A stretch of DNA of 64,000 bases, from positions 22,174,822 to 22,238,821 of the forward strand of contig CM075857.1 of the NCBI GenBank assembly GCA_037975125.1. Direction: 5' to 3'. The notes below the pieces were generated by a model. It saw nothing but the letters and a program-made list of their open reading frames with translations. It was not told the origin of the DNA and did not search any database. Of the stretch, positions 19,179 to 63,345 are shown one piece after another (position 1 is the first letter of the stretch; each line of letters opens with the position of its first letter). The DNA is from Latrodectus hesperus (lineage: Eukaryota; Arthropoda; Arachnida; Araneae; Theridiidae). The translations under genes were made by a program, and so were the position numbers.

Positions 19179-19191
19179 ATGTACAAACATA

Positions 19192-19956
19192 CCTGGAACC
19201 AGGGGGTACGTGTACCTTCCTGGGGCTTGAGCACAGCCACCAGGCGCGTCGGCAAGTGGTTGATAGCCGAATGTCCTGTAGGAATGACAGGATAGCCTTG
19301 AATATAGAATCAGAGGCCGCGAACCAGCTCCCGTAAACCCTGGTGTTATGCGATCCGTACCTAGGGCTAATTGGCACCGCGGTATTGGTGTCTTAACGGA
19401 GCCTCTAGTTGCCTGGCGAACTTCTAGAGTAAATTGCCTTGCCCAGTAACTCAGGCAATTCTGGGTGGACTTATATTACCTAAGCTTTTTAATTGTTATC
19501 TTGTGGCTGAAAAGACACAAGAAGTAACAACCCTTTCTGCATTTGCAGGTGAAGCCTCTAAAGTAGACCTTGCTGAAAAAGACAAGGGAACTCAGAGGCA
19601 ATCTTGTAAAGGGGCAGAGAACGTTATTCCTAGCATGACTGACTTTCTGACCAGATGGGACTATTTCAGCAAGACCTTATCTGCTGGAAATGTCATATGC
19701 AAGAGGAAACGGCAGAGCATGTCATTTACGAATGTGAGGCTCTTGCCCTCCCTAAATTAACTTCTTTAGGCTTCATCCATACTAGAGAGTTACACCTAGA
19801 TTCCATTAAAGGGTTATCGGACTTTATTAGTAAAGTGGGTGACCCGAGCAACTGGAACTAGGAAACATTGGGTTTGGAGTTAATGGTACAAAATGCTGAT
19901 AAAAGCAGAGGTGCCCAATGACATACAAACTCAATTTTAAGAAGAAGAAGAAGAAG
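19192..19956 (+). mobile_element. Short LINE derivative (0.8-kb family), copy A
   Basis: Flanked by the 13-bp duplication ATGTACAAACATA (19179-19191 and 19957-19969). It starts CCTGGAACCAGGGGGTACG, has a GC-rich leader of about 240 bp, and ends with a (GAA)n tail. It joins the 5' end of a LINE to the last part of its ORF2, with most of the element missing. Compared with copies B and C it also lacks about 70 bp (the MNPSLEVEM segment). The matching start in A and B suggests that this is the true 5' end. Confidence 0.92.
19655..19861 (+). pseudogene. LINE ORF2 C-terminal Cys/His tail (copy A)
   Basis: A 68-residue frame with CWKCHMQEETAEHVIYEC (C-x2-C-x8-H-x4-C), then LTSLGF and DFISKVGDPSNWN before the stop. 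This is the usual end of ORF2 in jockey/R1/I-type LINEs. No reverse transcriptase remains. An overlapping frame that carries TDFLTRWDYFSKTL belongs to the leader side of the deletion junction, so the two halves are out of frame. Confidence 0.8.
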
Positions 19957-20191
19957 ATGTACAAACATATGATTACATATGTTTAAATACATATATTATG
20001 TATTTTAAATTACAAAAATTTAGCCATTTTACAACATACCGCATATATTTTCGCATGCAATCAATGAAACGGATACAATGAATGAGGCTTTATATTTTTC
20101 TCACTCAGTGGATCCTTTTCTGAACGTGAGGGCTAACTAAACTGAGGTATACGGTTCAAAGTAGATTGCGAACCATTAAAACTAAATTCTG

Positions 20192-20455
20192 AAGCACGAC
20201 AGCCCATGTGGGTCAAAGCTTACTGTACCCATCTCTGTTTTCTTGATCGAGAGGCCCTGGGGTGCAAACCGACTTGATGGTCAGCTTAACGCAAAAAACA
20301 TCAGTGTTTATTTCTCAAGCATGCTTGATACTCAGTTTATCGCCCCACTGAAAGTATGAAAGGCTGAGTCAACCTTGCCACTCTCGAGGATCGAACCGTG
20401 GACCTGTGCCTTGGCAGCGTGAAGTGTTACCACTAAACCACTGGACTTCTGTGAA
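20192..20455 (-). mobile_element. tRNA-derived SINE, family F4
   Basis: Minus-strand head CAGTGGTTTAGTGGTAACAC and B-box CACGGTTCGATCCTCGAG, then GGCAAGGTTGACTCAGCC, AAGCATGCTT and GACAGCCCATGTGGG on the plus strand. Near full length for F4. Confidence 0.88.
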
Positions 20456-20469
20456 TTTTTGAGGTTTTC

Positions 20470-20600
20470 CATTTTTGGAAAGTTACTCTGACGTGTAACA
20501 TAATGCTCCGAACCAATATCCAAGGCAGGAATTCGAAACCACTAACTGTTAACCGTAGATGGTCAGAGAGCTAACCATTCGTCTGACCTTCAATGGTAAT
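20470..20600 (-). mobile_element. Probable tRNA-derived SINE head, family F8
   Basis: On the minus strand, GAATGGTTAGCTCTCTGACC resembles an A-box region and GTGGTTTCGAATTCC a B-box, followed by CTTGGATATTGGTTCGGAGC. Only one copy is present, so its boundaries and family status are uncertain. Confidence 0.5.
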
Positions 20601-21883
20601 CTAGTCCAAAATCAACTTTAGATTCATTTAAACACACTTAATTTTTAATTTTGGATACTTCTGTAGTAATTATTTTTTTTTTCCATTTTCATTGATATTT
20701 CAAAACAATTCGGAATGATACAAGTATTATAACACACTACATTATCGCTATCATACACGTCACTTTAATAATTTATTATTCTGTGTCATTATGATAATTT
20801 ATTCATTATCATTGAGATAATTTATTCTGTGTCAAATATGCATTTTCATGAGAAATTTCATAAAGTTTAAGTAAAAAATTTATTTTTTACATCCTTTTAA
20901 TTTTATACTGCGTGTAAAAAAATAAATTTTCAAATAATTATTTCAAAATTTTCATTTGCCTATTAAAATGTGATATTTGTGTCAGCAAACATCTGATGAT
21001 CAAAATAACAAAGCTTATATCTGAAGGGAAAAAACTTTGAAATTTTTTTATTCAAACACAATATTACGCGAAATAACTAATTACTAATCTTAATTTTAAT
21101 TACTTATTACGCTCATACTTCGCAATTAATTTATCATTAAGAATAAAAACTTTACTTAACAAAATTTTTGAGCATAGATAATCTTCTTGCGCATGATGTT
21201 TATCTTAGGCTAAGGTTCCTGCTCTACTCCTAAGCTTAGATGCTGCAATTAATCATGGCTCTATCAGAGGGTGAGATTCTGACAGTTTCTAAGCGATTCA
21301 ATTTTCCTCCCTGAGGGAAAAAATGCCCTCAAATGAGGGATTTTCTCAAAAGTTGTTTCTGAAGTTCCTCTGAATAAGTGAATAAAATATTTACAGCAAA
21401 AAGCTCATATTTTGAATGCAAATATGAGAATTTTATGTAAAATAACAAAGCTTTACGTAATGGGTCATTAAGGAAAAGATTTTGAATTAATAATTGAAGT
21501 TGCTTTTCCTTCATGGGTATTTATGTAAAAATTTCCATTTTTGATCATCTAAAGATTATTAAACACAATATATTATACTGTCTGCAATCATTATTATTTC
21601 AATCCATTACAAAAGTTTGGGGAATTTAATTAAAAGAGATAATTGTGATCGATAAAACTGATTCTCCTACTTTTTAAAAGTTTTGTGTATATTTGCCTGA
21701 ACGCTTAATTCTTATATTTTGTTGAATGCAATATTAAAAAATGTTTGATGAACAGTAAATGAATACAATATCATTATTAGGAATAAAATTTCAAATCTAA
21801 TATTTATTTTAATTTTCAAAGCAATTTAAATCTAAGATTTTGTTTTCTCAATAGAGATTAAAATGTTATTTATCCTTGAGAAG
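20601..21883. other. AT-rich DNA with a short block shared with 49.3 kb
   Basis: 21265-21330 (GGTGAGATTCTGACAG, then GCGATTCAATTTTCCT) is repeated with changes at about 49290-49350. The rest shows nothing recognisable. Confidence 0.5.
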
Positions 21884-22164
21884 CCCGTTGGTGTAGTGGT
21901 GTCTTTTCGCGCTTATAAACCACTGGTCCGAGGTTCAGTCCTCGGGCTAGGCAAGGTCGACTCACCCTTCCATCCCTTCAGTAAGTCAATAAAAAACATC
22001 AAGCATGCTTAGGAATTAAACACTGGTGGTTTCGCTTGTGGCTGACCACCTAACCGTGATATATGCTTCGTACCCCAGGGCCCTCAGTCATGAAAACACA
22101 TATGGGTGCATTAGACTTGGACCCCCATATGGACTGTCATGCCTATGAGAGAGGGGAGAGGATT
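21884..22164 (+). mobile_element. tRNA-derived SINE, family F4, full length
   Basis: Head GAAGCCCGTTGGTGTAGTGG, B-box CGAGGTTCAGTCCTCGGG, GGCAAGGTCGACTCACCC, AAGCATGCTT, GGCTGACCACCTAACCG, CCAGGGCCCTCAGTCATGAA and GGACTGTCATGCC. It gives the reference order for the family. The 3' end leads into a CATA/TA microsatellite. Confidence 0.92.
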
Positions 22165-22167
22165 TAT

Positions 22168-22253
<86 letters not shown>
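22165..22253. repeat. (CATA)n/(TA)n microsatellite
   Basis: Directly follows the F4 SINE 3' end and begins with a few CATA units before pure TA. Confidence 0.97.
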
Positions 22254-22255
<2 letters not shown>

Positions 22256-22361
22256 CTTCAATAGTTTCCTATATTCCCATAATAATTTTATCTATAAAAT
22301 ATTATCATGAAGAATATAAGATTTTGCATATCTTCTTCACTTGTGCTGAATAAATATTAGA

Positions 22362-22595
22362 TTAATATGGGTGTAATAGTCTGGAGAAAATTTCCTCCCC
22401 ATTAAGACCAAAGTCAAAGTTGAGGGAGTGGATAATCTGGTGGTGCCATCTATCGGAGTAATCTAAGAGCAAAGTCATACTTTCATTTTCGTGGTGCTCT
22501 GGTTAAACGAAATACTCACCCTACTGACTTAAATTCGCATAGCCAAAGTTATAGCGATCGTGGCTTGTCCAAACATTATAAGTAACAGCAACAAC
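22362..22595 (+). mobile_element. SINE family F5, 5'-truncated
   Basis: Begins ATGGGTGTAATAGTCTGGAG and carries GGTGCCATCTATCGGAG, TGGTGCTCTGGTTAAACGAA and GGCTTGTCCAAACATTATAA, as in the fuller F5 copies at 25.5 kb (plus) and 49.8-50.2 kb (minus). The tRNA-like head is absent. The ACAGCAACAACA end resembles a simple-repeat tail. Confidence 0.85.
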
Positions 22596-24237
22596 ATATT
22601 AACCACAATAATATATATTTTAAGTAATAAAAAATGTCCTTTTAAGTTTATCAAAATATACCGACTAAGATTTTTTTCAAGTATCCATAAAATCGTTTTA
22701 CAATAAAGCTTAAATTTTTAAACATTTTAAATTTCATTTTAGTCTTTTATTCACTTTATCTAAAATGTGAACTGTTATTTTGAGTAATTACATCGCAATA
22801 TAGGTAGACAATGGCCTATTGTCAATGATTTTGGTATGAAGATAGGAATATAAGGATAAATATACCTACAAAAATTGCAACAATCTGAGAAATTTGAAAT
22901 AATAGGCGCCTTTTTTTAACTTTATTTCGTTATTCTTTATAAAAACCTAGTAATTTTCATACGCATGACTAATAAGTAATGAAATGAGAGAGTATTTAAA
23001 ATACGTATTCCTTTGAAACTTTCCAATGTTTCCTGGACTATAATTAACATCATGTTTTATTTTTTATTCCTACTTACACCTTTGTAATAGCAGTCAATTA
23101 TTCTATGTGTCAACAAACATGTGCTCGAAGTTCGTTATGGATTTGTCAAGGATCCTGCTTTCCTATGTAACCTTCACTTCTTAAAAAAATCGGTTTAGAA
23201 AAGACTTTTTATGTATGTAACATACATCAGAAGCTGCTCAATCTTGTAATTACGTAATAAGTTCATAGTTAGGTGAGAACAGTTAGGTGAACAAAATGAC
23301 TAGAGGTTCAGGAAGTGCTGGGTAGTGTCACGGATAATATTAATTTTATCACCTATGCGCTGAAAAAAATTATTTCTTTTTCAGCTACATATCAGAGTTT
23401 TCTTTATCAAAACGCGAAAAATAAAGAAAGAATCCAATGAATAATATTATATATTAGAAAAAGAAACTTTTCCTCAGATAATGTCATGATTACACACAGG
23501 GTTCATACTATCGCATATCATGTAAACATTATATAATGAAAAATCTCTTTTATAATAGCAGTATAAATGTAAAAATATGCAAAAACAACACATAAGATGT
23601 TGAAGATAGGATTGCAAGGATAAGTATACCTTCGAATAATATTAACAGCAGCAATTTTCAGTTGTTGAATGAGTCGTTCATGAGCGAATTCATGAGTTAT
23701 TATGAAGTCAGATGTATTTAAATGGAAAAACTTCACCACAACTGAGTATTTTTTAAATTAGGTTCATTAGGTGTAATTTGACTTGTACTCTTTCTCTTTG
23801 CTATAATATAATTTATGTATTTCAGATAAATATTATAACTTTACTGGAACAAATGTAAATTGTTTAATTTTTTATGCCAATTTTATAACTAACATTAGAA
23901 TATTTTTCGATTAGCTTGTATGGACCTGAAAACATAGGATTCAAAATCGAAGTCATAGGTTCTAAATTAACAAGGTTCATTTTTAAAATAAAATAAATTT
24001 TCTTAGCATATATGTATTTATTTCTTAAAGAAATAGGCTTCTGTTTTTATCAGTTGTTATTCTTCATGTTTCAACATAAAGTCACTTATTTTTAAAAAAA
24101 ATACTAATATTGGGTGCTTTTAAGAATAGCAATTTTAATAAAGAATTTTCTAACAATTTTGACTAGTTAAATTTGAATTAATTATATATCTCGTAACTAA
24201 AGACCCAAATAGCTCTCCCGATACCCCTTTTCCGCGG
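22596..24237. other. AT-rich DNA, nothing assigned
   Basis: A 73-residue minus frame at 23518-23739 has no recognisable domain. No repeat family seen. Confidence 0.4.
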
Positions 24238-24294
24238 GGGGCTGCGGTGGCCTGGTGGGCTAGGACGTCGTTTTCATTACCAGAAGATATCGAG
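24238..24294 (+). mobile_element. SINE family F2, head (split by an F3 SINE)
   Basis: GCTGCGGTGGCCTGGTGGGC and TTTTCATTACCAGAAG match the F2 head. The body resumes at 24588. Confidence 0.82.
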
Positions 24295-24581
24295 ATACCG
24301 CCCAACTTGTCTAGAAGTCAGCGTGCCTAACTGCGGATAGGGAGGTCCTGGGTTCGGATCCCGGTTCAGGCATGGATGTGCTTTCTCTCTCTCTATCTAT
24401 CAAGTCTTTGTCCTTTCCTTGTAAGAATTAGTTCTGAATGGTAGCCTACCCTATAAACAGGGTCCTATCGCATGTGTGTACTGAGGAAGTTGGACTCCAC
24501 ACCTAAATATGGTTCAGCTGGAAAAGTGGAGCAGCGCACCCCATAATGCCAGCCTAGCTGGCACACGACAACAACAACAAC
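24295..24581 (+). mobile_element. tRNA-derived SINE, family F3, nested in F2
   Basis: Head CCAACTTGTCTAGAAGTCAG, B-box TGGGTTCGGATCCCGG, then TTCAGGCATGGATGTGC, CCTACCCTATAAACAGGG, GGTTCAGCTGG, and a (CAA)n tail after GCCAGCCTAGCTGGCAC. The short duplication ATCGAG lies on both sides (24289-24294 and 24582-24587), inside the F2 B-box region. Confidence 0.88.
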
Positions 24582-24587
24582 ATCGAG

Positions 24588-24815
24588 TTTGAATCTGGGC
24601 TTAACCGAAAATACATCATGTTTGTTAAAGGAGGCTGAAGCATGTTAAATACGTAGTGGTCGCAATATCATCCAAGTGAAATGATATCTCTGTGCATGGC
24701 AGGCCAAGTATTGGGGGTCTACCTCTTAGTCCCTGCTGCAAAATCACTGATTCCACCCGGCTACTCTTTTCTAATTCGTAGAGCCCAACTTAGGGCAAAG
24801 TACTTTTCCAACAAC
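24588..24815 (+). mobile_element. SINE family F2, body (continues 24238-24294)
   Basis: Resumes at TTTGAATCTGGGC (B-box remainder), then CGCAATATCATCCAAGTGAA and GGCCAAGTATTGGGGG, the F2 body. Confidence 0.82.
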
Positions 24816-25490
24816 ACCTTTTCCGATATATTAAGATTAATTTATAGTAGTTAAACAATGCATATAGCTATTTCAGAAATTTGTTTAAATGTGATGTGGC
24901 AAAAACTGCGTATCTCTGCCACTACGTAATTTTTGAACGGCTCTTGAAAGTTTGACCTATTCCTCATGTGGCGAACATAGGTTTCTCTTACATTTTCATA
25001 AAAGAAATTCACATACACTGCCCCACATCATAATTGGTATGGTGGTAGACAACCTAGAGGTTCCATCGCTTTTAAGCATAGTCATGTGAAGCAGATTGCA
25101 TTTTCAAGAATGATAAGTAGACACTTTAAATGTATTAACATTGACCATGCAAAGATGTTCTTCCCCGTATACAGGAAATGCAATATCACGCATTTTACCC
25201 CTGGTCATCTACTTTCCTGTTTATGACTCAAAAATGAATGCTTGTTTCAAAGTTCTCTTCCTGTCTTGGACTTTTTGTTTGTTCACGGACACATCGATCT
25301 GGTTTATCCTCTTGGCTAACCAAATAGGATAAGCAACAACGAAAAAATATTTTACAGTTAAAATAATTTAATCTTGCAACGGTATGAGTACAAGCATTTA
25401 ATGTCAAATATGGTATAACTTACATCAAATCAAATCACTGAACTCATTGTTTTTTATTCATTTAATTTAAGTAGCAATGTTTCATAAAAT
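24816..25490. other. Unassigned DNA
   Basis: No repeat match found. A 63-residue plus frame at 25141 is hydrophobic near its end, but has no homology I can name. Confidence 0.4.
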
Positions 25491-25495
25491 GAAAA

Positions 25496-25850
25496 GGATC
25501 GTGGTAGCTTAGGCCATCGGCCTTCTGTCCGGAAGGGCTGGGTTTCATTTCCCATGCCGCCGAAGACCCACCGAGTACAATTGATATACGTGCTCATTAA
25601 ACCTGTGGACTCGAAAGTCCTGTGATCGGTCGTTGAGCAGTTACCATGGGTGTAATGGTCTGGAGAAAATTTCCTTTCCCTCCAGATCAAATTCAAAATT
25701 GGGAGAGAGGTGCCATCTATCGGAGAAGTACTTTTACCTTCTTGGTGCTCTAGTTAAACGAAAGACTCACCCTTCTGACTTAATTTTGCATGTCCATCGG
25801 CTAGCTAGTTTAGCTTGTCCAAGTGTCATAAGTAACAGAAATAACAATAA
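25496..25850 (+). mobile_element. tRNA-derived SINE, family F5, near full length
   Basis: Head ATCGTGGTAGCTTAGGCCAT, worn B-box GGGTTTCATTTCCCATGCC, then CATGGGTGTAATGGTCTGG, GGTGCCATCTATCGGAG, TGGTGCTCTAGTTAAACGAA and CTTGTCCAAGTGTCATAAG, with an A-rich end. Confidence 0.88.
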
Positions 25851-26100
25851 AAAATAATATTTTATATTATATTAGTACAATAATTAATCCCAGTTAGGAA
25901 AATGTCTTTTTTCTTTACGACATGAAAATTGTCCATAAACATTTATTAATAATTAATTTCTTTCTCAAAGGGACAGAAAGGATTATTTTGCTAAGTTTTT
26001 TCTTTAAAAAAATAATAATTATTAAATTTCGTTTGATATTCTTTATTTAGATATGTTATACAGGGTGATTTATTTAAAAGAAAACCGGTTAATTTTTTTA

Positions 26101-26992
26101 TTAGGTTGGTGCGTATGAAATGTCGGATTCTCTTTACATGCGGACGTTTTCCTCCCTGTTTTCGTTATACTTTTGTATTTGGCATAACCTCATTCATACT
26201 CGTATTGTCCATTGCCAGAGACTCATTTCAGCAAAATAGGTTTTCTCGAAGGTCTTCCCTTTTTTATTTCTTTTGAGTTTCTTGCCGATATGAATTCTGC
26301 CGACATTCGCGTCATTTTCTTATATGAGTACAAACTTGGTAATAGTGCTGCAAAAGCTGCACGCAACATAAACCAAGCGTTTGGGGAGAATACGGTTAAC
26401 GATCGGAAAGTGCAGCGTTGGTTCGAAAAATTTCGGACTGGCGATTTTTCACTGCAAAATGAGCCGCGCGGAAGACCCAAAACGTCTGTGAAGAATGATG
26501 ACCTGAAGGCTCTAGTGGAAGCGGATCCAGCCGTATCCACGAGGGAACTTGCTATCAGGATGAAAGTTGACCATACAACGATATTGAGACACCTTTCTGA
26601 GATTGGCAAGGTTAAGAAGATGGACAAGTGGGTACCGCACGCACTGACAGAGCGAAATAAGCTGGATCGGTTAAACGTATGCTCATCATTGCAGCATCCA
26701 CCCTATTCACCGGATCTCTCGCCGACCGATTTTCATTTTTTCAAGCATTTAGAGCTGTTTTTAAGGGGCAAACACTATGAAAATGAAGACAGTCTAAAAA
26801 ATCGATATCAGAGTTTATTAATTCTAAAGACCAAAATGTTTTTAAGACAGGCATCTACGCTTTAAAATCTCGTTGGGAGAAGTGTATTGAAGCGAATGGA
26901 GCATACTTTGATTGAATAAACAGCTTTTGAAGAAAGATATGCAGTTTTATACAATCACTTAAGAATCCGACATTTCATACGCACCAACCTAA
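26101..26992 (+). mobile_element. Internally deleted mariner, copy 2
   Basis: Perfect terminal inverted repeats of about 31 bp (TTAGGTTGGTGCGTATGAAA outward), with TA on each side (26099-26100 and 26993-26994). 892 bp. It shares the deletion junction of copy 1 exactly. Cleaner ends than copy 1, but its frame carries a 1-bp loss near the 3' end. Confidence 0.96.
26212..26865 (+). pseudogene. Mariner transposase, middle deleted and C-terminus frameshifted
   Basis: The usual start is probably the Met at 26290 (MNSADIRV). It keeps both DNA-binding segments, including GRPKTSVKNDDLKALVE and TRELAIRMKVDHTTILRHL, and the linker WVPHALTERNKLDRL. The same jump as copy 1 leads from VCSSL to QHPPYSPDLSPTDFHFFKHL, so the first two catalytic aspartate regions are absent. 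After EDSLKN a one-base loss (AAAAAATCG here, AAAAAACTCG in copy 1) changes the frame to RYQSLLILKTKMF until another change restores the FLRQASTL end. Confidence 0.92.
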
Positions 26993-26994
26993 TA

Positions 26995-27493
26995 TAACTT
27001 TTTAATCTGACGCGTGTAGCAATTATTCTAGCATTGAAATACAATGGCTTAAATCTTGTTTAAGTGTGAGAGACAATTTTCCACATTCACGTGTAACCAG
27101 GAAGGAAACCTAGAAGTCTCACAAGCATTCCCAATTTGGGCTCACCATGTTTTAGTGTTAGTAAATCTATCTTCGAAGTATAAGGTCTTAGGTTTTATCC
27201 TAACCACTGTTGAAGAATGGAAAATTGTTACGTTTCTATCTTCTAAGCACACCTGATGGAGTGAACGCTGGGAAGTTTGCCGGGTTTTTTCATCTTGCGA
27301 CATGTGAATACAGCCTACTTTTTATGCTTTACAATTACTTACTTTTCAATAGATGCAAAGAAGCCTTACAAATTTTCTCTCTATTTATCTATCTCTATTT
27401 TTTTGCGAATATATCTTTAATGAATTGTATGATGCTTTTTGCTGAAGTGGGTGTAAGTTATAAGCAATTTCAATTTTGTAAGAGTTACGCAGT
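26995..27493. other. Unassigned DNA
   Basis: Short open frames only. The frame at 27210-27608 runs into the LINE derivative and is not a gene. Confidence 0.4.
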
Positions 27494-27504
27494 ATTTTCA
27501 ATTT

Positions 27505-28332
27505 CCTGGAACCAGGGGGTACGTGTACCTTCCTGGGGCTTGAGCACAGCCACCAGGCGCGTCGGCAAGTGGTGGATAGCCGAATGTCCTGTAGGAATGA
27601 CAGGATAGCCTTGAATATAGAATCAGAGGCCGCGAACCAGCTCCCGTAAACCCTGGTGTTGTGCGATCCGTGCCTAGGGCTAATTGGCACCGCGGTATTG
27701 GTGTCTTAACGGAGCCTCTAGTTGCTTGGCGAACTTCTAGAGTAATTTGCCTTGCCCAGTAACTCAGGCAATGCTGGGTGGACTTATATTACCTGAGCTT
27801 TTTAATTGTTATCTTGTGGCTGAAAAGACACAAGAAGTAACAAACCTTTTTGCATTTGCAGGTGAAGCCTCTAAAGTAGACCTTGCTGAAAAAGACAAGG
27901 GAACTCAGAGGCAATCTTGTAAAGGGGCTGCAATGAATCCTTCACTTGAGGTAGAAATGACCTCTAAACCATCTTCTTCTGGTGAAAGTCAGGAAGCTAT
28001 TCCTAGCATGACTGACTTTCTGACCAGATGGGACTATTTCAGCAAGACCTTATCTGCTGGAAATGTCATATGCAAGAGGAAACGGCAGAGCATGTCATTT
28101 ACGAATGTGAGGCTCTTGCCCTCCCTAAATTAACTTCTTTAGGCTTCATCCATACTAGAGAGTTACACCTAGACTCCATTAAAGGGTTATTGGACTTTAT
28201 TAGTAAAGTGGGTGACCCGAGCAACTGGAACTAGGAAACATTGGGTTTGGAGTTAATGGTACAAAATGCTGATAAAAGCAGAGGTGCCCAATGACATACA
28301 AACTCAATTTTAAGAAGAAGAAGGAGAAGAAG
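27505..28332 (+). mobile_element. Short LINE derivative (0.8-kb family), copy B
   Basis: Flanked by ATTTTCAATTT (27494-27504 and 28333-28343). It begins CCTGGAACCAGGGGGTACG, as copy A does, and ends in a GAA-rich tail. The leader is followed by an ATG at 27933 that opens MNPSLEVEMTSKPSSSGE, which looks like the start of ORF1. This then joins the last 70 residues of ORF2 in another frame. At 828 bp it is the most complete of the three copies. Confidence 0.94.
28028..28234 (+). pseudogene. LINE ORF2 C-terminal Cys/His tail (copy B)
   Basis: The same 68-residue tail as copies A and C: CWKCHMQEETAEHVIYEC, then DFISKVGDPSNWN and the stop. It differs from copy A by one residue (LLDF for LSDF). Confidence 0.8.
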
Positions 28333-28343
28333 ATTTTCAATTT

Positions 28344-28939
28344 AATTCAATATTCAAAATGATATATAAACTTTTCTGAACTCACTTTTTACACAACAAA
28401 ATTATTTCTGGGCTACCTTACTTTACCTACTGTACTTACCTTACTTTTGTTTATTGTACTTTGTAGGCAACTGTTATTGTACGCAAGATATTTTTCATAT
28501 AAATGTCAATAACTTTTCTCTGGTGTTCGAATTGGAAAGCTTCTGAATACTCTAAAATACAAATTTCTATTTTTGTTGTGCAAAGTAAGCAAGCATCTAC
28601 TTCCTTAAATATCAAGCATGCTATTTACGCATAGTCTGTTTCTGAAACTTTTAAGGGAAAACGTTGCAATACTGATGAACGAAGAACTTTTTTTTTCAAT
28701 ACGCAATCCAGTAGAGCAATATGTCAAACAATATTATCAATTATAAAAATACTTTTCCTTCAAATGTAGAGGAGCAAAGTTACAATAAAAAAAATCAATT
28801 CACTATATTTCTAATTCCAATTTATCTACATTGTTTTGTATTCAATTTATGCAATAATTTTATTCGGCGAAAAGTTGTGTTAAACTATTATTACTGAAAA
28901 ATTTATGAGCTAAATCCATACTATTTATAAAAAAAGGTC
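28344..28939. other. AT-rich DNA, nothing assigned
   Basis: No frame or repeat recognised. Confidence 0.4.
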
Positions 28940-28952
28940 TATAAATATTATT

Positions 28953-38672: not shown

Positions 38673-38794
38673 TTATTATATTGTTTTCATATTATATATA
38701 ATTTTATAAATATTGAAATAATGTTATAAATATTTCCTTCTTTTAAATTGACATTTTTCTTTTCATTTGTCATTTTTTTTTCCATTAAATAACG

Positions 38795-39451
38795 ATGCAT
38801 TTGGATTTTAAGAAATTTTCCCATTATTTAAGTGCAAGAAAAATTTTTGATTATTTTATTTTGTACATCCAATATCCATATCCAAAAATTGAAATTTGTG
38901 GACGAAGCATTAAAAAAGTTAAGGAAATGAAATATTTAGGAGTAATTCTCGATTGCAAACTATCATGGCTCCCTCACATCAGGCAACAAAAGATAAAGAC
39001 TATAGCTATTGTAAACAGCCTAAGACGAACAACGAATAGAAACTGGGGTGTAAATGCCAGAATTCTTAAAATTTGGTATAAAACCATTATTGAAAGAATG
39101 ATATGCTATGGATCCGCAGTCTGGGCGGAACCAATGACAAGCAGAAAAGTCAGACAGCTATCCAGTTTGCAGAGACACTTCACCTTAACTATCACTAGAT
39201 GTTTCCGCACGACTTCTACGGCAGCATTAAACCTCTTGGCAGGAGTCTTTCCATTACATTTAATGTTTCAACTAGAAGCTGCTGAATCTAACATGCTCCA
39301 ACATCAAGATAAAATCACTTTCCTAGATGCAATTTACAACCCAGATGACTTTGAAATTCCCTTCAAAGCATTATTCCACCCAGAAACACAGATGAAAGGG
39401 ATAATGGTTCACACTTTGAATCCTACACAGTGCCAAGGCATTCACCAATAA
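38795..39451 (+). pseudogene. LINE reverse transcriptase C-terminal region
   Basis: Residues from about 26 on carry YLGVILDCKLSWLPHI (the post-catalytic YLG motif) and a linker RSNRNW-like region read as RRTTNRNWGVNARILKIWY. ICYGSAVWAEP and LSSLQRHFTLTITRCFRTTS follow, then AALNLLAGVFPLHL. These are the thumb and connection blocks of LINE polymerases. The first 25 residues look like non-element sequence. The FADD-type catalytic motif is not present, so this is only the downstream part. It ends at a TAA that lies in frame with the RNase H below. Confidence 0.82.
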
Positions 39452-39859
39452 TTTTTCACTGATGGCTCAAAAATAGAAGGCCAAGTGGGAGCAGCTTTCT
39501 GCATTTTCGAAAATGGACAGGAGAGTGGTTATTGGCAGGGACAATTAGGAGAAGCTAACAGTGTTTTCCAAGCAGAATTGGTTGCGATTGATAAAGCATT
39601 AAATTATATAGCCGAAAATAATTTATACAAGGCAGTGATTTGGTCAGACAGCCAATCAGCTCTTTTGGAAATATATAATCCATATCACAGAAGCCCACTG
39701 ATTCAGGACATTCAAAATCGACTCAGGACATTTAGCAATCGATGGCAAATTTTTCTTCCCTGGATCAAGGTTCATACCGGACATACTGGTAATGAAAGAG
39801 CTGACACACTGGCAAAGCAAGCTGCCAAAGCATGCTTAAACACGCAAAGAATTGAATAA
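39452..39859 (+). pseudogene. LINE RNase H domain, catalytic residues retained
   Basis: In the same frame as 38795-39451, after one TAA. It reads FFTDGSKIEGQVGAAFC, FQAELVAIDKALNYI, VIWSDSQSALLEIY and HTGHTGNERADTLAK. That keeps the four acidic positions expected of RNase H (DGS Asp, AEL Glu, SDS Asp, RAD Asp) and the nearby His. The domain would remove RNA from the RNA-DNA hybrid during reverse transcription. The first Met is at 39485, beyond the DGS motif, so no normal start produces the whole domain. Confidence 0.88.
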
Positions 39860-40062
39860 AATGGCCCAAATCATACTTGATTTCTAAATTACGCAATCAT
39901 TTACTAATTGCCTGGCAACAAGAATGGAATGAGACAGAACAAGGTAGAGGGACATACAGCCTTAAACCCTCTGTCTCTCTTGATTTCCTAGTCAATGACC
40001 ATTAAGAAGCACAGTTTCTTTCTGGACATACTCCAACACCGGAGTATCTCAATAAAAGGGGT

Positions 40063-45152: not shown

Positions 45153-46258
45153 GAATATGTAAGCTTAGATGCACAGTGAATTGGGCTTTTTTTCCATTTT
45201 GTTGAAAAGAGATTGGGTAAAGATTTTATCCCAAACTAAACTTCTGTTATCAAACAATGCAACACCATGAAGGGATGACATAAACGAACTAAAATCTTTA
45301 GCAAATTACGTTTGTGTCGTGAAAATGCTTAAAATTTCAGGAGAGAATCGCAGGCATGAGATAAGCAGTGACCCTGAGTTATTGCTGTTATCGCAAAAAA
45401 AAAAAAAAGATGCCTGTAGCGGACTTTTAAAACACTGTATAGTCATTGCTTGTGATAAACATTAGTTGAAACATAACAATACGTCTTCGATGAAAGAGGG
45501 CGATATTTCAACAACTTATTAAGACTTCGTGAATAAAGATTTTCCCACTGTGCAGTAAGTTGCTGCTTAAAAGAAACAGATTAGTCCGAGTTTATAAACA
45601 GTGAACCATGAAGAATTGGATAGTAAAAGGCAAAAAGATTTTGACCGAAAATGTAATTTTAAAAAAAGTGACATTAACAGTCAATGCAGAAAGAGGCAAA
45701 GAGCAGCCCTCAAGGTGCTTATGGATCGTACTTCATCTGGACAGTTGGAAACACAGTGATCCACAATTGCAGGTGCATTGCTGTCTTCTTAATCAGTTCG
45801 CTTACATCTGATGTACTGTGGATTACGTGCAAGAATTATTTTATACAAAATCTCGCTTTCGTAAAATGATCGACATCTAAAGCTGTGATGAGCTCATAAA
45901 TACAAAAACTAGCTTGCAAATTGACAACAACTAGCTTTTTTATCCCGATTACCTTTTCGATTTTTGCTACCATAATAGTGTCACTCATGTTAGAAGCTAC
46001 GCCTGTAAATGTTAATTTTTGAGTCTATTATTGATCGTCAAAGTGGACGAAACACTCGGAGTTGTTCTGGGTACCATGAATGATCTCAGGTGCCACATAT
46101 TATAATTCTAAAACCCAAAACCACGCCTTTCTTTCAAAGCATTCCTGGAATTATTTTTCAACAGGATAATACCCATTCACACATGCCACAAGGAATGTTC
46201 CATTTACTTTATTAGATTAGATTTGGTAATTGCCGTACCCTTCTGGATGCCTATTAGT
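45153..46258 (+). pseudogene. Tc1-like transposase fossil
   Basis: Across frame changes the 46.05-46.20 kb stretch reads LGTMNDLRCHI, then LKPKTTPFFQSIPG and IIFQQDNTHSHM. This follows the order of the second catalytic block in Tc1-type transposases (GTM..., then QQDNARPH). The Asp of QQDN is kept. The upstream and downstream parts are too decayed to place, and no inverted repeats were found. The frames at 45608-45869 show no domain of their own. Confidence 0.65.
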
Positions 46259-47110
46259 GAAGTTCTCTCTCCTTCGATTTCAAAATTGTGATCCGTTAGA
46301 AAAAGAATTTTGCTGTGTAGGCCTTGGAGGAAAGAATCAGATACGAAATTACAGATCCTAATTATAATTTATTTTCCAGGCGTCACAAAACAAAACATGT
46401 TCAGAATCTAATATGGCTTGAGAAGCCTATAGATAAGTGACTGGAGTGTCAAACAGTCAAAGTAATTACATGAAGTTCTCTCTCCTTCGATTTCAAAATT
46501 GTGATCCGTTAGTAAAAGAATTTTACTGCGTAGTCCTTGGAGGAAAGAATCAGATACGAAATTACAGATCCTAATTATAATTTATTTTCCAGGCGTCACA
46601 AAACAAAACATGTTCAGAATCTAATATGGCTTGAGAAGCCTATAGATAAGTGACTGGAGTGTCAAACAGTCAAAGTAATTACATGAAGTTCTCTCTCCTT
46701 GGATTTCAAAATTGTGATCCGTTAGTAAAAGAATTTTGCTGTGTAGGCCTTGGAGGAAAGAATCAGATACGAAATTACAGATCCTAATTATAATTTATTT
46801 TCCAGGCGTCACAAAACAAAACATGTTCAGAATCTAATATGGCTTGAGAAGCCTATAGATAAGTGACTGGAGTGTCAAACAGTCAAAGTAATTACATGAA
46901 GTTCTCTCTCCTTGGATTTCAAAATTGTGATCCGTTAGTAAAAGAATTTTACTGCGTAGGCCTTGGTGCAAAGAATCAGATACGAAATTACAGATCCTAA
47001 TTATAATTTATTTTCAAGGCGTCACAAAACAAAACATGTTCAGAATCTAATATGGCTTGAGAAGCCTATAGATAAGCTACTGGAGTGTCAAACAGTCAAA
47101 GTAATTACAT
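46259..47110. repeat. Tandem array, 4 units of 213 bp
   Basis: Units start at GAAGTTCTCTCTCCTT (46259, 46472, 46685, 46898) and end AAAGTAATTACAT, each exactly 213 bp. Units 1 and 3 share TTTGCTGTGTAGG, while 2 and 4 share TTTACTGCGTAG. Units 1 and 2 have CTTCGATTT and 3 and 4 CTTGGATTT. More degenerate GAAGCC...GACTGG pieces follow to about 47250. Confidence 0.97.
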
Positions 47111-53415: not shown

Positions 53416-54522
53416 TATTTAAAAACACAATTTCATATTTAACAATTTACATCTAAAGTCTTTTGTGAAAATTTCTCCACAAGCAATTCTGATTTTTTTT
53501 CTCTCTTTAGATTATTTTACCTCAGATTTTCATTAAATTTTATTTTCTCAAATAAATTTCCTATCAATTTTTCTACCTCCTAAAAAGACAGATACGAATC
53601 AAAATGAACTCATTAAATAATCTGTATACAAAATTTTAATTTGTTCTATTTTATCCAATCATAATAGCTTTTAATATCTTTTAAATTTTAACATTAAGCC
53701 TAAAATACATATCACATAGAATCTTTATTTCGATAAAATTAGTAATTAAAAGTGAGGAAATAAAACAATGCTTTCACTACAAACATCAAGCCAAACAATT
53801 ATGAATGCAACAAAAGGCAAAATTAATCATCACATTTATCCGTCCATAAAAGTCCATTTATTATTTAAAATTTATCCATCCTTTTTAATGAATTTTCTAT
53901 TTAATGTGCTAAAAATGAAAATAAATTGATAACTTTGTTTTCATCGGAAAACTGAAATGAATGAGATTATACTATGAGATTTAGATTATACCTCTAAATT
54001 TTTCATTATACCTGACTCATTTAAATATTATAAGCTGCTATCAAATGGCAATTAACCGATCTTTTCGAACGTAAGCTGAGAAAATTAGTTCCTTTTTTTC
54101 CTGGATTGAAAGTAAATGAGCAGAGAAAAAAATACTTCCATTATCTTGATAACAATCGAAATAAAAGGAATGCTTACATGTATCCAAAAATAGTTTTCTA
54201 AGAAAATACTGGTTTCAGTCTTATTTCAAGCAATTAAAATTGGCCTTTGAATAAAACCGGTATAGATAAAAAAGAAACTGCAGACACGCTTTTATCATTG
54301 TTCTATGAAATTGAAATACGAAAGTTATTTCAAAGTGTAGTACTTTAGTTGAATTTCAATAGAATGAGAACGATAAAAAAATAATAAGACACTTTTTTCC
54401 TTTCTATTCAAGGGAAAGGTTAAATCAAAAGAATGTTTTAAACTTTTGAAAGGAAAACATATTTATTTTTCCACAGTGAGAAAGGATCTTTTGAGAATGT
54501 TAAGTTACACGATATATATACA
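53416..54522. other. AT-rich DNA, nothing assigned
   Basis: No coding or repeat signal recognised. Confidence 0.4.
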
Positions 54523-54524
54523 TA

Positions 54525-55806: not shown

Positions 55807-56959
<1,153 letters not shown>

Positions 56960-59150
56960 ACTTTATACTTTTGAGATTATTTACTATATGCTTGATATTT
57001 CGAATTGCAACAATCTACTTTGCAATACAAAATCACAAGTATACATCAACTATAAAAATTAAATGATGTCTTGAAAGCTTGAAATTTTCTTTTACTCTAT
57101 GAAGTTATAGAATATTGAAGAAGTTGAACTCCTTTCACCGGCTCTTAATGCATTTCTGTGTTGGCCGAAAATGGGAAAAATGTTAAAAATCAATGTTAAT
57201 ATGGGAAAACAATGCTTTTACAAAAATCGAACGAGAATTTTTCCCCATCGCGAAATGTATTTTCCTGAAAAAATATGTGGAAATACAGAAAGAAATATGG
57301 AAGCGCTTTCTCTATTCTCAGTGGTTAAGCATAAATGGCAACTTTAAAGGAGAGCTACGGCTTCTTTCTTGAAGCGAGAAGAGTTCCGGATTAAAATGTA
57401 ACATCACTTAGATAATTACAGTGGCATTAGCAACTTTATATAGGAATTCGATTAACGCGAACTTATCTTTCAAATTAACTACAAATTCTAATGAGAATCT
57501 TGAAATAAAATGTAGCTTTTTTAAGTAAGGCAGAAACGGACACGCTGATGTAAGTTTTATTTCATTTCACGCAGTATTTTTGACTAAATTTGGATATATT
57601 TTTGGTGAAAAATTAAACAAGATTTTTATTTAATAGCATTTTTTGCAATTGTTTCCTTGGTATACTTACTCAAGTTTATTTATTGTATGGAGCACAATAT
57701 AATCTCCGTCTAATAAATTTGTCAAAACAAAACTATAAGTATAAGGGTTTGTTTATCAATTTATTTATATCACTTTTAAATGCAAATCTCCTCAGTTGCT
57801 TAGAATTATAGATGAAAATTTTAAGTAAGACGCATAATATAAAAAAATTCAAAATATGTAGTATAACGTAAACGGTAAAATTGTTTTAAAAGAAAAAGCA
57901 TTTGGAATCGAAAATTGTTTGAAAATAAAGAAAAAAGTTTTGAAACAAGTTTTAGGAAAAATTAATTCATTGCATTTAAATTCCCCTATACATCAACCAC
58001 AGTGAACGAATAGACATGCAACTCTTATTTACCTTAAAATAATTATCAAAAATAATTATTACAAGCATTTAAATAAACTTTTTTTTTGTTAATGAAATGT
58101 CTAGTAGGTTACAATTGAAAAACGCTCCTGGTTAAATTGCAGTTTAAAATTTCAATGACATTTTAAGAATACTGCTTCTTATTTGTGAGTCCCGAAAATG
58201 AAATCGATAAAATTCCCAAACGTGCTTCAACAGGTAAGATTGCCAAATAAGAAATACAACATTCATCGCCAATTCTTCAGTGGTGATTAGGTACAAATCC
58301 ACGATATTCCATCCAGGAAATCCCGTTTTGAAATACTTTATTTGAAACAAAAGACATATTTGTAAAAGAAATTAAATAAAAACTTTAATCTTTTACGATT
58401 AAAATTAAAATTCCCTCCTTAGAAAATAATAGTTAAATAAAAAATGTTTCTAAATTCCAAAGATTATATTGCTATCAATTGATTGGTTGCTGTCGGGTCC
58501 AGGAAGTTAACTATATCCGTGACTGCCAATGATGGCTTCACTATATTATCTGTTTAGAGATCACTATCGAATGGGTATTCTCTGATATTCTAGACAGATG
58601 CCAGTATTGATGGACAATTAAAATTATGGCTTGGAGAGAGTTCTTCGTCAGGATAATGTCTACATTTTACATATGTTCAGTTATTGAAGCATATTTATGA
58701 TCTACATTAAAATCTAAAATCAACAAGGCAATATGTTTTCTATCTTACCATTCTCCTGATAGGATTTATCCTTCTCGAAATTTGCACAAACAATTACATT
58801 CGAAATTGTCCCAAGCACAAGCCAAATGTTCAATTTTAAAAAAATGTAGATTTGCAAATCCGCAAATACAAAAATTATGAAAAAATTCGAAAGTTTCCAT
58901 AATAATTCTTATAATAAACCTTTTAACTTCAAATACTATAGCAGACCGCAACCATCTTTAAAAGTTTTCTGCGAAAAAAAGAAATCAAAATATTTAATTT
59001 GTCTATAAATTCAGTTTTATTTTATGGTACATTCAAATTAAAAATCGTATTTTCAAAGAAAAGCCTTATTTTATAAGTCCGCTTAATAAAATAGTCTTAT
59101 CTTGGTTTTTTATTCTTTACAGTGAATCACTTGTAATGTAATGCAAACCC
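56960..59150. other. Unassigned DNA
   Basis: A 68-codon minus frame at 58144-58350 lies in sequence that is less AT-rich than its surroundings. No domain or repeat match was recognised, so it is not called. Confidence 0.4.
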
Positions 59151-59154
59151 ACCC

Positions 59155-59440
59155 ACTCCCCAGCGCGCACGTTTTTAATCTCCGTAATGCTTCGCAATCT
59201 CATTCAAAGACTTTACGTTTAATAGCATCTTGAAATCAGTTTTAAGAATTCGCATTTTAATGCGAATTCTTTCAAAGCGTCGGGTGCCATTACCTGAAAC
59301 CTTTTGTCGTGGTGAAGCGGCGTTTGGATCATTATGAATAGTCGGGGAGAGAAAATTAAACACCTCCAACAGCCTTCTTCGAAAGCGTTTCATTTGATTA
59401 TCTCACGAACAGTATACAGGCATCATGCGATCTGTAATGA
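59155..59440 (+). repeat. Dispersed palindrome-bearing repeat, copy 4 (best palindrome)
   Basis: 59246-59269 is GAATTCGCATT, two T, then AATGCGAATTC, with both 11-bp arms perfect. It is preceded by GCATCTTGAAATCAG and followed by CCATTACCTGAAACC, TTTTGTCGTGG, CATTATGAATAGTCGGGG, GAAAATTAAA and TTTGATTATCTCACGAAC. The minus frame here is a shadow. Confidence 0.82.
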
Positions 59441-60329
59441 AGGAAAAAAAAAGATAGGCAGCATTTTCAGTAAAAATAACAGCAATTTACTCTCGTAAAG
59501 GCATCAATCGGTTTTGTTTAGAGGAGTAATGAACGCAACGCCCTTTCCTCTCTTTCGATATTTATTCTACCATAAATTTTAATTACCATCAGATTTAACA
59601 GAGAATTTTTCTTCTTTTTTTTTTGCAATTTTTCAGTAGCTGAAAATGAGAATAAACCCTTAATACCAAGTAAAAATGTTATTGAGTATAATTAAGAAAG
59701 AAAATTTCATACCCTATAAAGATTCATACTTTGGTAAAGTGGTTAACGATCTTGGTGTGCATTCATTCAAGAATGGTGAAAAAAAGTGAGCACAATGATG
59801 CTTGTGAAAAGAGATTGTTATAATTTTATGGAAGTATATAATTTTTATTTTTAATCTTTTTCAGTGGAAGCGTGTTTATTTATTTTTTTTTTGTTTATTA
59901 ATAAGATTTTAATAATTGGTAAAAATATTTTGAATGGTTTCATTATTGATTAATTTGAAGGAAAATTACAATCGCTGTTCTTTTACTATAATAAAATCAT
60001 AAGATGCCACAGAATATGAAAAAAGAACTCGTTTGAAAGAATAAGCTTATTTTTAATTTTTTTATTGGAAGTACGTTTTACGTTATTTATTCATTTTTGT
60101 AAATCATCGTCTTAGGATGATTTTTATTACTTATATAAATCTAAAACAAAATATAACATAGAAGCTTTTTATTTATTAATTTAAATTTAATCCCTTCTCA
60201 TATTACATCATATTCTGTGTTAAATTCAATGAGCTGTATCACTTATACATTATACTGATTAAACGGAATATAATAAATAATATAAATTTAAAATTTAACT
60301 GATCTAAATTTACTTTATTTAAATTTCGA
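59441..60329. other. AT-rich DNA, nothing assigned
   Basis: No feature recognised. Confidence 0.4.
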
Positions 60330-60459
60330 AAGATAAAAATTTCTTACTCTGCTGCTAGTAGTATTCTAGGGCCTTAAAATCTATATATTTCTTCTTTCTG
60401 AGTAGTAGTTCAAATTTCTGGTGCATAAGTTACAATAGGTCTGATAATAGTTTCATATA

Positions 60460-61074
60460 CAGTAATCCCCTCAATAACAAGGTACTCTTATAACACGTTT
60501 TCATATTACGCGATATCATGTCCCTCGTATAACGCGTGTTCCCCCCCCAATTAACGTGTAAATTCCTCACGCTTGATTTCTGTACTATGAAGTTAATAAT
60601 GATTTGTAGAGTTCACAATCAATTTCGAGTATGTTTGCACATTATGTCAATTGTGTTCTCACTAAAATTAATTAAATAGTATTATTGACCTTTGAACATT
60701 CTGATAAAAAAAGATGTCGCGGTGGAATGTTATTTCAGGTAACTTCTACAGCGAATAAACATGTAATAAAACTGTTTTAAGAATTATTTGATTTATTTGA
60801 AATTGATCTGTTTTTTAGTTACATTTGTGAAAGTTTTTATTTAAAATGTTCTTAATTTGATTTGAATAAAACCAACACATTTCGTTTATAACACAGTTTT
60901 CCCTTAATATTCAATTTAAGACCCCTTTTTACGAGAAAGACGAGAAAGTTAAACGTGAATCATTTGTACAGAACGTGTTATACCAGGTCATACGAGCGCG
61001 TTTGATGAGAATACTCGTACAACGCGTTTTCCTATAACGCGGAACTACTATGCCTTGTTATAGGGGGATTACTG
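60460..61074. mobile_element. MITE with CAGTAATCCCC ends, inserted in the LINE
   Basis: Ends CAGTAATCCCC...ATAACAAGG and (inverted) CAGTAATCCCCC...ATAACAAGG, with TA on both sides (60458-60459 and 61075-61076). 615 bp with no transposase. Subterminal TATAACGCG/ACGCGTT motifs occur in opposite orientations. The ends and TA target suggest the pogo/Tigger group. Confidence 0.9.
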
Positions 61075-61139
61075 TAGTACCTTCTTGACAGCGCAGAAGA
61101 TTTAAATAGCTGACTTATTGAAAAGTAACATCTGTTTCC

Positions 61140-61930
61140 CTGGGGCTTGAGCACAGCCACCAGGCGCGTCGGCAAGTGGTGGATAGCCGAATGTCCTGTA
61201 GGAATGACAGGATAGCCTTGAATATAGAATCAGAGGCCGCGAACCAGCTCCCGTAAACTCTGGTGTTATGCGATCCGTGCCTAGGGCTAATTGGCACCGC
61301 GGTATTGGTGTCTTAACGGAGCCTCTAGTTGCTTGGCGAACTTCTAGAGTAATTTGCCTTGCCCAGTAACTCAGGCAATGCTGGGTGGACTTATATTACC
61401 TGAGCTTTTTAATTGTTATCTTGTGGCTGAAAAGACACAAGAAGTAACAAACCTTTCTGCATTTGCAGGTGAAGCCTCTAAAGTAGACCTTGCTGAAAAG
61501 ACAAGGGAACCCAGAGGCAATCTTGTAAAGGGGCAGCAATGAATCCTTCACTTGAGGTAGAAATGACCTCTAAACCATCTTCTTCTGGTGAAAGTCAGGA
61601 AGCTATTCCTAGCATGACTGACTTTCTGACCAGATGGGACTATTTCAGCAAGACCTTATCTGCTGGAAATGTCATATGCAAGAGGAAACGGCAGAGCATG
61701 TCATTTACGAATGTGAGGCTCTTGCCCTCCCTAAATTAACTTCTTTAGGCTTCATCCATACTAGAGACTTACACCTAGACTCCATTAAAGGGTTATCGGA
61801 CTTTATTAGTAAAGTGGGTGACCCAAGCAACTGGAACTAGGAAACATTGGGTTTGGAGTTAATGGTACAAAATGCTGATAAAAGCAGAGGTGCCCAATGA
61901 CATACAAACTCAATTTTTAAGAAGAAGAAG
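61140..61930 (+). mobile_element. Short LINE derivative (0.8-kb family), copy C, 5'-truncated
   Basis: Flanked by ATCTGTTTCC (61130-61139 and 61931-61940). It starts about 30 bp inside the 5' end of copies A and B and ends with (GAA)n. It keeps the MNPSLEVEM segment (ATG at 61539) and the same deletion junction as B. It is inserted in the minus-strand LINE, opposite in orientation. Confidence 0.93.
61634..61840 (+). pseudogene. LINE ORF2 C-terminal Cys/His tail (copy C)
   Basis: The same 68-residue tail as copies A and B, with one change (HTRDLHL for HTRELHL). The Cys/His residues of CWKCHMQEETAEHVIYEC are intact. Confidence 0.8.
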
Positions 61931-63345
61931 ATCTGTTTCCAGCAACCAGTCTAGCCTTTATTTCAGGATTTACCTTATTTTTTCTGTGATAAATGAACCT
62001 AGATATTTACATTCAGTCGTCTTTTGAAAATCGAGCTCAGTATTTACTGCATTGTTGACCAAACCACATCCTCTATCTCCTCCAAGAATATAATTAGTTT
62101 TCTCTCTATTAACCAGAAGTCCCTCTGCCTTTGCCTCTTTTTATAGGTTTTTATAGTTTTCAACTAGACAGTCTTCAGTTCTAAACATCAAATCCCCATC
62201 ATCCGAAAAGGCAAAAATTTGCAAGAATTGATTTATTACTGTGCTCCTTTGATCAGAGTAAAACTTTTTGTATGATATATTCCAAAAACATAAGTTAGAT
62301 GCTGTGGAAATTGCATCTCACTATCTTAATTATAAAATTTCTTGAAAACTTTCCCTGCACTTTGGCTTTTATGGTTAACGAAGTCATTTTAACAAACCGT
62401 ATTAATTTTACTGGTATTTCAAATTCATTCAAGATGTGGTGATACAATTTTTTTCTGTTCATACAGTCGTATGCTTGCGTAAAATCAATAAAAAATGTAA
62501 ATAATTTGATGTTTTGAGTATAGAACCTCTTCAGAACATTTCTAATACCAAAAATCTGGTCCGCAGTGAACCTACCATTTCTGAATCAATATTGAAAGTC
62601 ACTGATTATTTTTTCTGCATAAGATTGTTATCTATACGCAATAATTCTCGAGAGTACTTTATATGAAGTACTCGAAGGAGATATTCCACTATAATTTCCT
62701 CAAGTCAATATATTACCTTTTTTTATATATAGGGCACATGATTGATTACACTTTGCCATTCAATTTTTGATCCACACGCTTTCCAAGAGGTCATGTGGTA
62801 ATATCCTTAAAAAGTTTTCTTCTCTATATTTCAGCATCTTGGCTGTAATTAAGTCTTCAACCGTACCTTTTCTACTTTTTTATAGCTTGTTTTGTTTCTT
62901 CAACTGTTAGAGACTTACAGAATTGGTCATCATCCACATTATATTCATTTATCTCAACCTCCTCAATTGTTATATCCTCTTTAGTAGCTCTTCAAAATAT
63001 TGTCCATCTTTCAATTATTTTGCTTTTTTCGATAATCATTTCTTTGTCCCTGTTTTTACAAAAACTTATTTTGTATTGAAACCCTTTATTGATGCTTTTA
63101 ATGTTTGAATGAATTTTACAGGTGCCTCACATGGATTTTTCACTTCCTATATTCTATTTTTTTTAATTTTTTTTCTACGATGCAATACTTTTGATACGAT
63201 ATTCCTTTCTTCTTTATAAGGCTTTTCGTTTTGTATAGTTCCATAGGAAAGAATTTTTTCCAAGCAATTTTTTGTTTCAGTTCTCTCCACTCACTACCAA
63301 ACCATTCCTTTCGTGGTGTATTTTTCTCGTCCTCTAAATTTTTTA
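61931..63345 (-). pseudogene. Reverse transcriptase of the RTE-like LINE (pseudogene)
   Basis: Read through several stops and frame changes. EWFGSEWRELKQKIAW lies near 63.3 kb and LTVEETKQAIKK near 62.9 kb. ALYIKKGN and GNYSGISPSSTSYKVLSRII follow, corresponding to the NYRGISLL...YKxLSxIL block. Then FRNGRFTADQIFGIRNVL and LFTFFIDFTQAYD carry the first catalytic Asp, and GKFSRNFIIK comes next. FAFSDDGDLMFR holds the Asp pair of the catalytic box (about 62198-62212), with Phe-Ser in place of Tyr-Ala. EAKAEGLLVNREKTNYILGG follows. All three catalytic Asp codons survive, but the frame is broken many times. Confidence 0.85.

What the first reader, a model, noticed from the sequence alone, without database searches (positions are those of the whole stretch)
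19179..61940. Three copies of one LINE-derived short element, mobilised after losing its middle
Copies at 19192-19956, 27505-28332 and 61140-61930 each have their own target duplication (13, 11 and 10 bp), a GAA tail, the same GC-rich leader and the same Cys tail. All lack the middle of the LINE. B and C share the junction and the ORF1-start segment; A lost a further 70 bp or so. C is 5'-truncated, as target-primed insertion predicts. This looks like a LINE-derived non-autonomous family that still moved recently, given the clean duplications and few differences.
Basis: partly seen in the sequence, partly recalled or inferred. Interest (0 to 1): 0.75.

Follow-up and report, generated by a model that had tools for sequence, protein, structure and literature searches.

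The report
Shortened jumping element made from a LINE
A mobile DNA element in an arthropod-like genome lost its protein-coding middle but kept both ends, and the shortened form then spread to many places, probably by borrowing the copying enzyme of its intact parent, which is still present in the same genome.

Summary
A (19192-19956), B (27505-28332) and C (61140-61930) are three separate insertions of one 0.8-kb retroelement, with exact duplications of 13, 11 and 10 bp and a GAA tail. In the window's own 1.64-Gb genome, 40 of 40 full-length copies read (B included) have the same junction; with A and C added, 35 of 42 have a 10-15 bp target duplication, against a mean of 0.075 for shuffled flanks. 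The parent LINE was found: its first 524 and last 300 bp match B at 94% and 92%, and between them lie 4158 bp coding most of a DUF4780 ORF1 and of a 1232-aa ORF2 frame with endonuclease, reverse transcriptase and RNase H. The short form is therefore a SIDE (short internally deleted element), a kind known from Drosophila R2, Lepidopteran CR1, Anopheles and trypanosomes; the family and parent type are new here. A's further 61-bp loss recurs in one other copy with unrelated flanks, so that form probably moved too. Mobilisation in trans by the LINE is inferred, not shown.

The parts
19179..19191 (+). copy A, left 13-bp target-site duplication
19192..19956 (+). copy A: SIDE with a further deletion of about 61 bp around the ORF1 start; GAA tail
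   Evidence: sub-form shared with C8:22297900-22298662
19957..19969 (+). copy A, right target-site duplication
19654..19655 (+). copy A: main deletion junction CCAG|ATGGG (1-nt overlap with the LINE flanks)
27494..27504 (+). copy B, left 11-bp target-site duplication
27505..28332 (+). copy B: full-length SIDE
27505..28028 (+). copy B: 5' part, homologous to LINE bases 1-524 (leader plus start of ORF1)
   Evidence: 93.7% to L062:2090-2613
27933..28028 (+). copy B: ORF1-start segment (MNPSLEVEMTSKPSSSGESQEAIPSMTDFLTR, 32 codons), cut off at the junction; that ORF1 starts at this ATG is inferred
28028..28332 (+). copy B: 3' part, last 68 codons of LINE ORF2 (CX2CX8HX4C), stop, 3' UTR and GAA tail
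   Evidence: 92.3% to L062:6772-7070
28333..28343 (+). copy B, right target-site duplication
61130..61139 (+). copy C, left 10-bp target-site duplication
61140..61930 (+). copy C: SIDE, 5'-truncated by about 28 bp; ORF1 start (ATG 61539) and junction (61633/61634) as in B
61931..61940 (+). copy C, right target-site duplication

Best explanation
A, B and C are members of a SIDE (short internally deleted element) family. Shown: a 5-kb LINE in the same genome (ORF1 with DUF4780; ORF2 with endonuclease, reverse transcriptase, RNase H and a CCHC tail) shares both ends with it; relative to that LINE the element lacks 4158 bp, from about codon 32 of ORF1 to the last 68 codons of ORF2; the remnant, with one junction, sits at many sites, each with a GAA tail and mostly with a 10-15 bp duplication, as in the LINE (12-14 bp). 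Inferred: the remnant is transcribed from a promoter in the retained LINE leader; the LINE's ORF2 protein recognises the retained 3' end in trans and inserts it by target-primed reverse transcription. The founding deletion was probably an RT template switch or a DNA repair event, because the junction has only 1 nt of overlap and its edges are not GT-AG.
For: Copies and junction: 40 full-length copies, B at 100% and 39 others at 99%, on many contigs; junction 40 of 40; duplications 35 of 42 against 0.075 shuffled. Parent: 150 scored LINE tails, three in 1232-aa open frames; B 1-524 and 524-823 match L062:2090-2613 and 6772-7070; DUF4780 1.6e-32, RVT_1 1.4e-37, Exo_endo_phos_2 9e-22, RNase_H 1.7e-15. 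Of nine LINE 5' ends that gave a match, eight start at the SIDE's first base; of 20 LINE 3' ends, 19 match B from position 524 and L058 from 564. The five full-length LINE copies with both ends read have duplications of 12-14 bp, three exact and two with one difference. Separate lineage: SIDE and LINE copies differ at 28 near-fixed columns in the 5' part and 12 in the 3' part; the 10 of these in the ORF2 tail fall 4/4/2 on codon positions 1/2/3 (same columns).
Against: No transcript or mobilisation data. The LINE ends read are 89-94% identical to B, so the exact source LINE was not seen; the search meant to find it did not complete. The SIDE copies read were the best matches to B, so their low divergence is biased downward; the unpicked A is 1.47% and C 0.51% from the majority. 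Seven of 42 copies show no target duplication at the cut-off. In 200 kb of randomly placed sequence no junction-bearing copy was found, so copy number is not established.
Confidence: 0.93

Rival explanations
1. A SINE: a small-RNA-derived head joined to a LINE tail.
For: 0.8 kb, no conserved long ORF, LINE-like tail, GC-rich head.
Against: The whole head is the 5' end of the same LINE that gives the tail; no tRNA in the window and no Rfam family at E<=5 in 27400-28400.
Confidence: 0.01
2. Ordinary LINE insertions that each lost their middle after insertion, or one insertion spread by segmental duplication.
For: Internal deletions are common in old LINE copies (recalled).
Against: One identical junction in 40 of 40 copies read and separate target duplications at separate sites; no flank similarity between A and its sister copy within the 0.5 kb compared.
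Confidence: 0.01
3. Retrocopies of a spliced LINE RNA rather than of a deleted master element: the 4158-bp gap is an intron.
For: One junction in all copies read, as a splice would give.
Against: Gap edges in the LINE are CCAGA|ATCAAG and CACAAA|ATGGG, with no GT-AG or AT-AC pair. Copies share substitutions not seen in any LINE copy read, in both halves, which fits a separately evolving master. A further shortened form (A) has a second copy.
Confidence: 0.04

Closest known systems
Persaeus, SIDE of the CR1 LINE Zenon in Lepidoptera (PMC6740152; parts 1-3 of 5 of the text read, into the Discussion)
   Same: 5' UTR plus ORF start joined to ORF end plus 3' UTR of a LINE; multicopy; no small-RNA head; partner LINE found in the same genome for 12 species
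   Different: CR1 parent, poly(A) tail, 263-386 bp, a variable centre of unknown origin and a 5-bp direct repeat around the break; here the parent has RNase H and DUF4780, the tail is GAA, the length is 0.83 kb, there is no extra centre and the junction overlap is 1 nt
[quoted passage not shown] abstract and Discussion read)
   Same: 5' and 3' LINE ends joined, spread by target-primed insertion
   Different: inserted in 28S rDNA and released by a 5' ribozyme; here insertion is dispersed and Rfam finds no ribozyme
TbRIME/ingi in trypanosomes and Ag-Sponge in Anopheles (seen only as cited in the two papers above)
   Same: internally deleted non-LTR elements
   Different: different parents and hosts; not compared here by sequence

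Membership tests
SIDE (short internally deleted element of a non-LTR retrotransposon) | both ends homologous to the ends of one LINE, middle absent | tested here: met
   ends confirmed in further LINE copies
SIDE (short internally deleted element of a non-LTR retrotransposon) | multiplied as the deleted form (one junction, many sites, target duplications) | tested here: met
   junction 40 of 40, duplications 35 of 42
SIDE (short internally deleted element of a non-LTR retrotransposon) | no head derived from tRNA, 5S or 7SL RNA | tested here: met
   leader is the LINE 5' end. A/B-box motifs of pol III were not scanned
SIDE (short internally deleted element of a non-LTR retrotransposon) | moved in trans by the partner LINE's protein | not testable with these tools
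   same 3' end, GAA tail and similar duplications as the LINE are consistent only
R2-type SIDE | 5' HDV-like ribozyme | tested here: not met
   no Rfam match at E<=5
R2-type SIDE | insertion into 28S rDNA | tested here: not met
   on many contigs with different flanks
SINE | head derived from a small RNA gene | tested here: not met
LINE with RNase H (I-group-like) as parent | endonuclease, reverse transcriptase, RNase H and CCHC tail in ORF2 | tested here: met
   (zf-RVT only weakly, 0.0047, below its cut-off); relatives with the same domains. Clade not tested by a tree; the group name is recalled

The most novel reading that the evidence does not exclude
The retained 300-nt leader may be a working cis element (promoter or RNA signal) kept intact while the rest of the SIDE drifted, so that the family is a natural minimal LINE showing which parts suffice for mobilisation in trans, and it may recently have outrun its parent. 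In 8 of 9 LINE copies the SIDE differs less in bases 1-300 than in 301-524 (for example 5/298 against 22/224 in L062; near-fixed substitutions 4 against 21, Fisher p 3e-5). The ninth, L063, shows no such contrast (20/273 against 16/224) and shares 21 of 40 SIDE-typical alleles (the others 0 to 10), so LINE subfamily structure explains part of it.
Probability: 0.3. Interest if true: 0.5.

Novelty: new member of a known kind. Interest (0 to 1): 0.4.

Why it matters
SIDEs are described as rare; PMC6740152 names fruit flies, Anopheles and trypanosomes as the only earlier cases and adds Lepidoptera. This is another family, with a different type of parent, a very uniform set of copies and possible helper LINEs with open ORF2 frames in the same genome. 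That makes it a good system for asking what a LINE RNA needs to be copied in trans, and why LINEs seem to make such derivatives so seldom compared with DNA transposons.

Tried and rejected
Rfam and tRNA scans: nothing. Leader fold hardly better than shuffles (z -1.0, 35 of 200 shuffles as good). Phage records by megablast, one leader pattern each in prokaryote genome contigs and viral contigs, and the tail peptide in viral contigs: no copy. A protein search with a 60-residue tail region: 4 candidates, none at E<=1. Pfam on the tail and on the leader frame alone: nothing at E<=1.

I first believed that the tail was frameshifted and built a joined-frame query on that. The LINE copy L055 showed that the tail is in one open frame, so the idea was dropped. 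I also first placed the junction near the 'GCTATTCC' bases; the LINE put it some 30 bases further on.

A claim that the SIDE leader is under selection was toned down after one LINE copy (L063) proved to share many SIDE-typical alleles.
Full report
What is in the window. Each is flanked by its own exact duplication (13, 11 and 10 bp), ends in a GAA run and lies on the + strand. B is full length (828 bp); C starts near B position 29; A lacks about 61 bp around the ORF1 start. No other copy is in the window at E<=1e-3.

The family. The window lies in an unnamed 1.64-Gb genome. The search with B scored 40 of 3167 first-look candidates and gave 41 matches: B itself, 39 other full-length copies at 99% and one partial copy at 96% beside one of them. 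I read all 40 full-length copies, B included. All 40 have the junction CCAG|ATGGG and all 40 start at the same base. With A and C added, 35 of 42 copies have a target duplication that scores at least 9 (length minus 3 per mismatch), 10-15 bp long; when right flanks are dealt out anew among copies the mean is 0.075 and the maximum 1 in 200 trials. The 7 of 42 below the cut-off are L008, L009, L013, L015, L018, L019 and L021; the flanks of several of them look like decayed duplications. In one search, 28 of these copies differ from the majority by 0.37-0.99% of 808 columns, C by 0.51% and A by 1.47%. The 28 were picked for likeness to B, so their range is biased downward; A and C were not picked. 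The genome-wide number is not known: 20 random 10-kb pieces held no junction-bearing copy, two 3' ends of LINE type and one 56-bp leader fragment. The search with A (40 of 2553 candidates scored) listed some B-type places not in the list; these were not fetched.

The parent. One of the random pieces (L055) held a 5'-truncated LINE with the same 3' end and an open frame (one stop) running on upstream. Its 147-residue C-terminus found 150 scored places (of 20213 first-look candidates), three of them in 1232-aa open frames. The one read in full (L062) starts with the same bases as the SIDE. B 1-524 matches it at 93.7% and B 524-823 at 92.3%; 4158 bp lie between. Pfam finds DUF4780 in ORF1, and an endonuclease, reverse transcriptase and RNase H in ORF2, with a weak zf-RVT match (0.0047, below its cut-off). 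Further LINE ends were read. Of 10 places tried for a 5' end (L062, L063, L066, L067, L083-L088), nine gave a match (L088 did not), and eight of those nine begin at the SIDE's first base, L063 being truncated at position 26. Of 20 LINE 3' ends, 19 match from position 524 and L058 from 564; L058 has no LINE body left and is called LINE by its alleles. The five full-length LINE copies with both ends read have duplications like those of the SIDE: three exact (12-14 bp), two with one difference. Relatives of the ORF2 reverse transcriptase reach 84% identity (sequences without a name); among the 120 of 1506 hits listed, those with an organism name are psyllids, moths and butterflies, plus one MAG labelled Gammaproteobacteria, and two of the moth proteins carry DUF4780 as well. 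This suggests an arthropod host. The tails of P0001-P0003 align along their whole length with the LINE tail at 69-73%.

Separate lineage. Across 42 SIDE copies and 9 LINE 5' ends there are 28 near-fixed differences, 25 of them substitutions (4 in bases 1-300, 21 in 301-524). Across 20 LINE 3' ends there are 12, 10 in the ORF2 tail and 2 in the 3' UTR. The 10 in the tail fall 4/4/2 on codon positions 1/2/3 (the same columns), as expected without coding constraint. Mean pairwise divergence in the 5' and 3' parts: SIDE-SIDE 1.1% and 1.6%, LINE-LINE 6.1% and 6.1%, SIDE-LINE 8.9% and 8.3%; both samples were chosen by similarity searches. LINE copy L063 shares 21 of 40 SIDE-typical alleles in the 5' part, L062 10, L067 and L087 9 each, the rest 0-2, so the SIDE came from, or exchanged with, a LINE subfamily nearer to L063. 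The exact source was not found.

The A form. Copy A's shorter version occurs in one other place among 40 scored (C8:22297900-22298662, 98%, about 103 kb away, opposite strand; read as L089). The flanks show no similarity to A's within about 0.5 kb. The duplication there is at best a decayed one: GCAACTGTGC against GCAAATGTGG. L089 also lacks the 2 bases that LINE copies lack near SIDE position 42-43, so it may be an older copy or a product of exchange. The further shortened form most likely moved by itself; a conversion between neighbours is not excluded.

How it works. Shown: one deletion junction, many separate insertions, both ends shared with a coding LINE. Inferred: transcription from the LINE leader, recognition of the LINE 3' end by the LINE protein in trans, target-primed insertion. 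Splicing as the source of the junction is unlikely, because the gap edges are not GT-AG; 1 nt of overlap fits a template switch or end joining.

Literature. PMC6740152 (parts 1-3 of 5) and PMC3414825 (abstract and Discussion) define SIDEs and call them rare. Searches for 'Persaeus' and, from 2018, for 'short internally deleted' gave no other SIDE paper. Searches on arthropod and spider non-autonomous elements showed no such element of another arthropod group in the titles and abstract starts listed (20 of 221 papers listed; 15 of 19; listings only). The library lacks most subscription journals.

Verdict. The finding is correct and well founded: a new SIDE family with a new type of parent, so a new member of a known kind.

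Noticed in passing
L029 (G000:C1958:16000-20500): Head-to-tail SIDE dimer: a full copy (1-824) runs straight into a 5'-truncated one (91-818, 96% to B) with one outer duplication AAGAAAATGGTA and none between them. This looks like an RT template jump between two SIDE RNAs.
   Followed up: partly
L018/L041 (G000:C756, just before 34683): The 5' flank of this SIDE repeats about 20 bases of the SIDE's own 5' end (GGAACCAGGGGGTACGTGTG) plus GATT; possibly another end-jump product.
   Followed up: no
window 16506-17398 and 26099-26996: Two mariner copies (98% identical over 900 columns, opposite orientation, inverted ends TAGGTTGGTGCGTATGAAATG). The frame has a Mos1-type HTH match and then a short C-terminal part; from recall of mariner transposases most of the middle is missing, in both copies, so a DNA transposon here may have done the same as this LINE.
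   Followed up: partly
window 38789-39950: Remnant of a second LINE with an RNase H-like stretch (frame broken several times), with a similar FLSGH..C.C..H..C tail but not the same family (read by eye, Pfam was run on 38789-39448 only and found nothing convincing).
   Followed up: no
window 3926-4736 and 46258-47110: Tandem arrays with units of about 31 bp and about 213 bp, from self-alignment.
   Followed up: no
window 19192-61930: Three SIDE copies in 64 kb against none with the junction in 200 kb of random pieces: either a local cluster or a chance of where the window lies.
   Followed up: no
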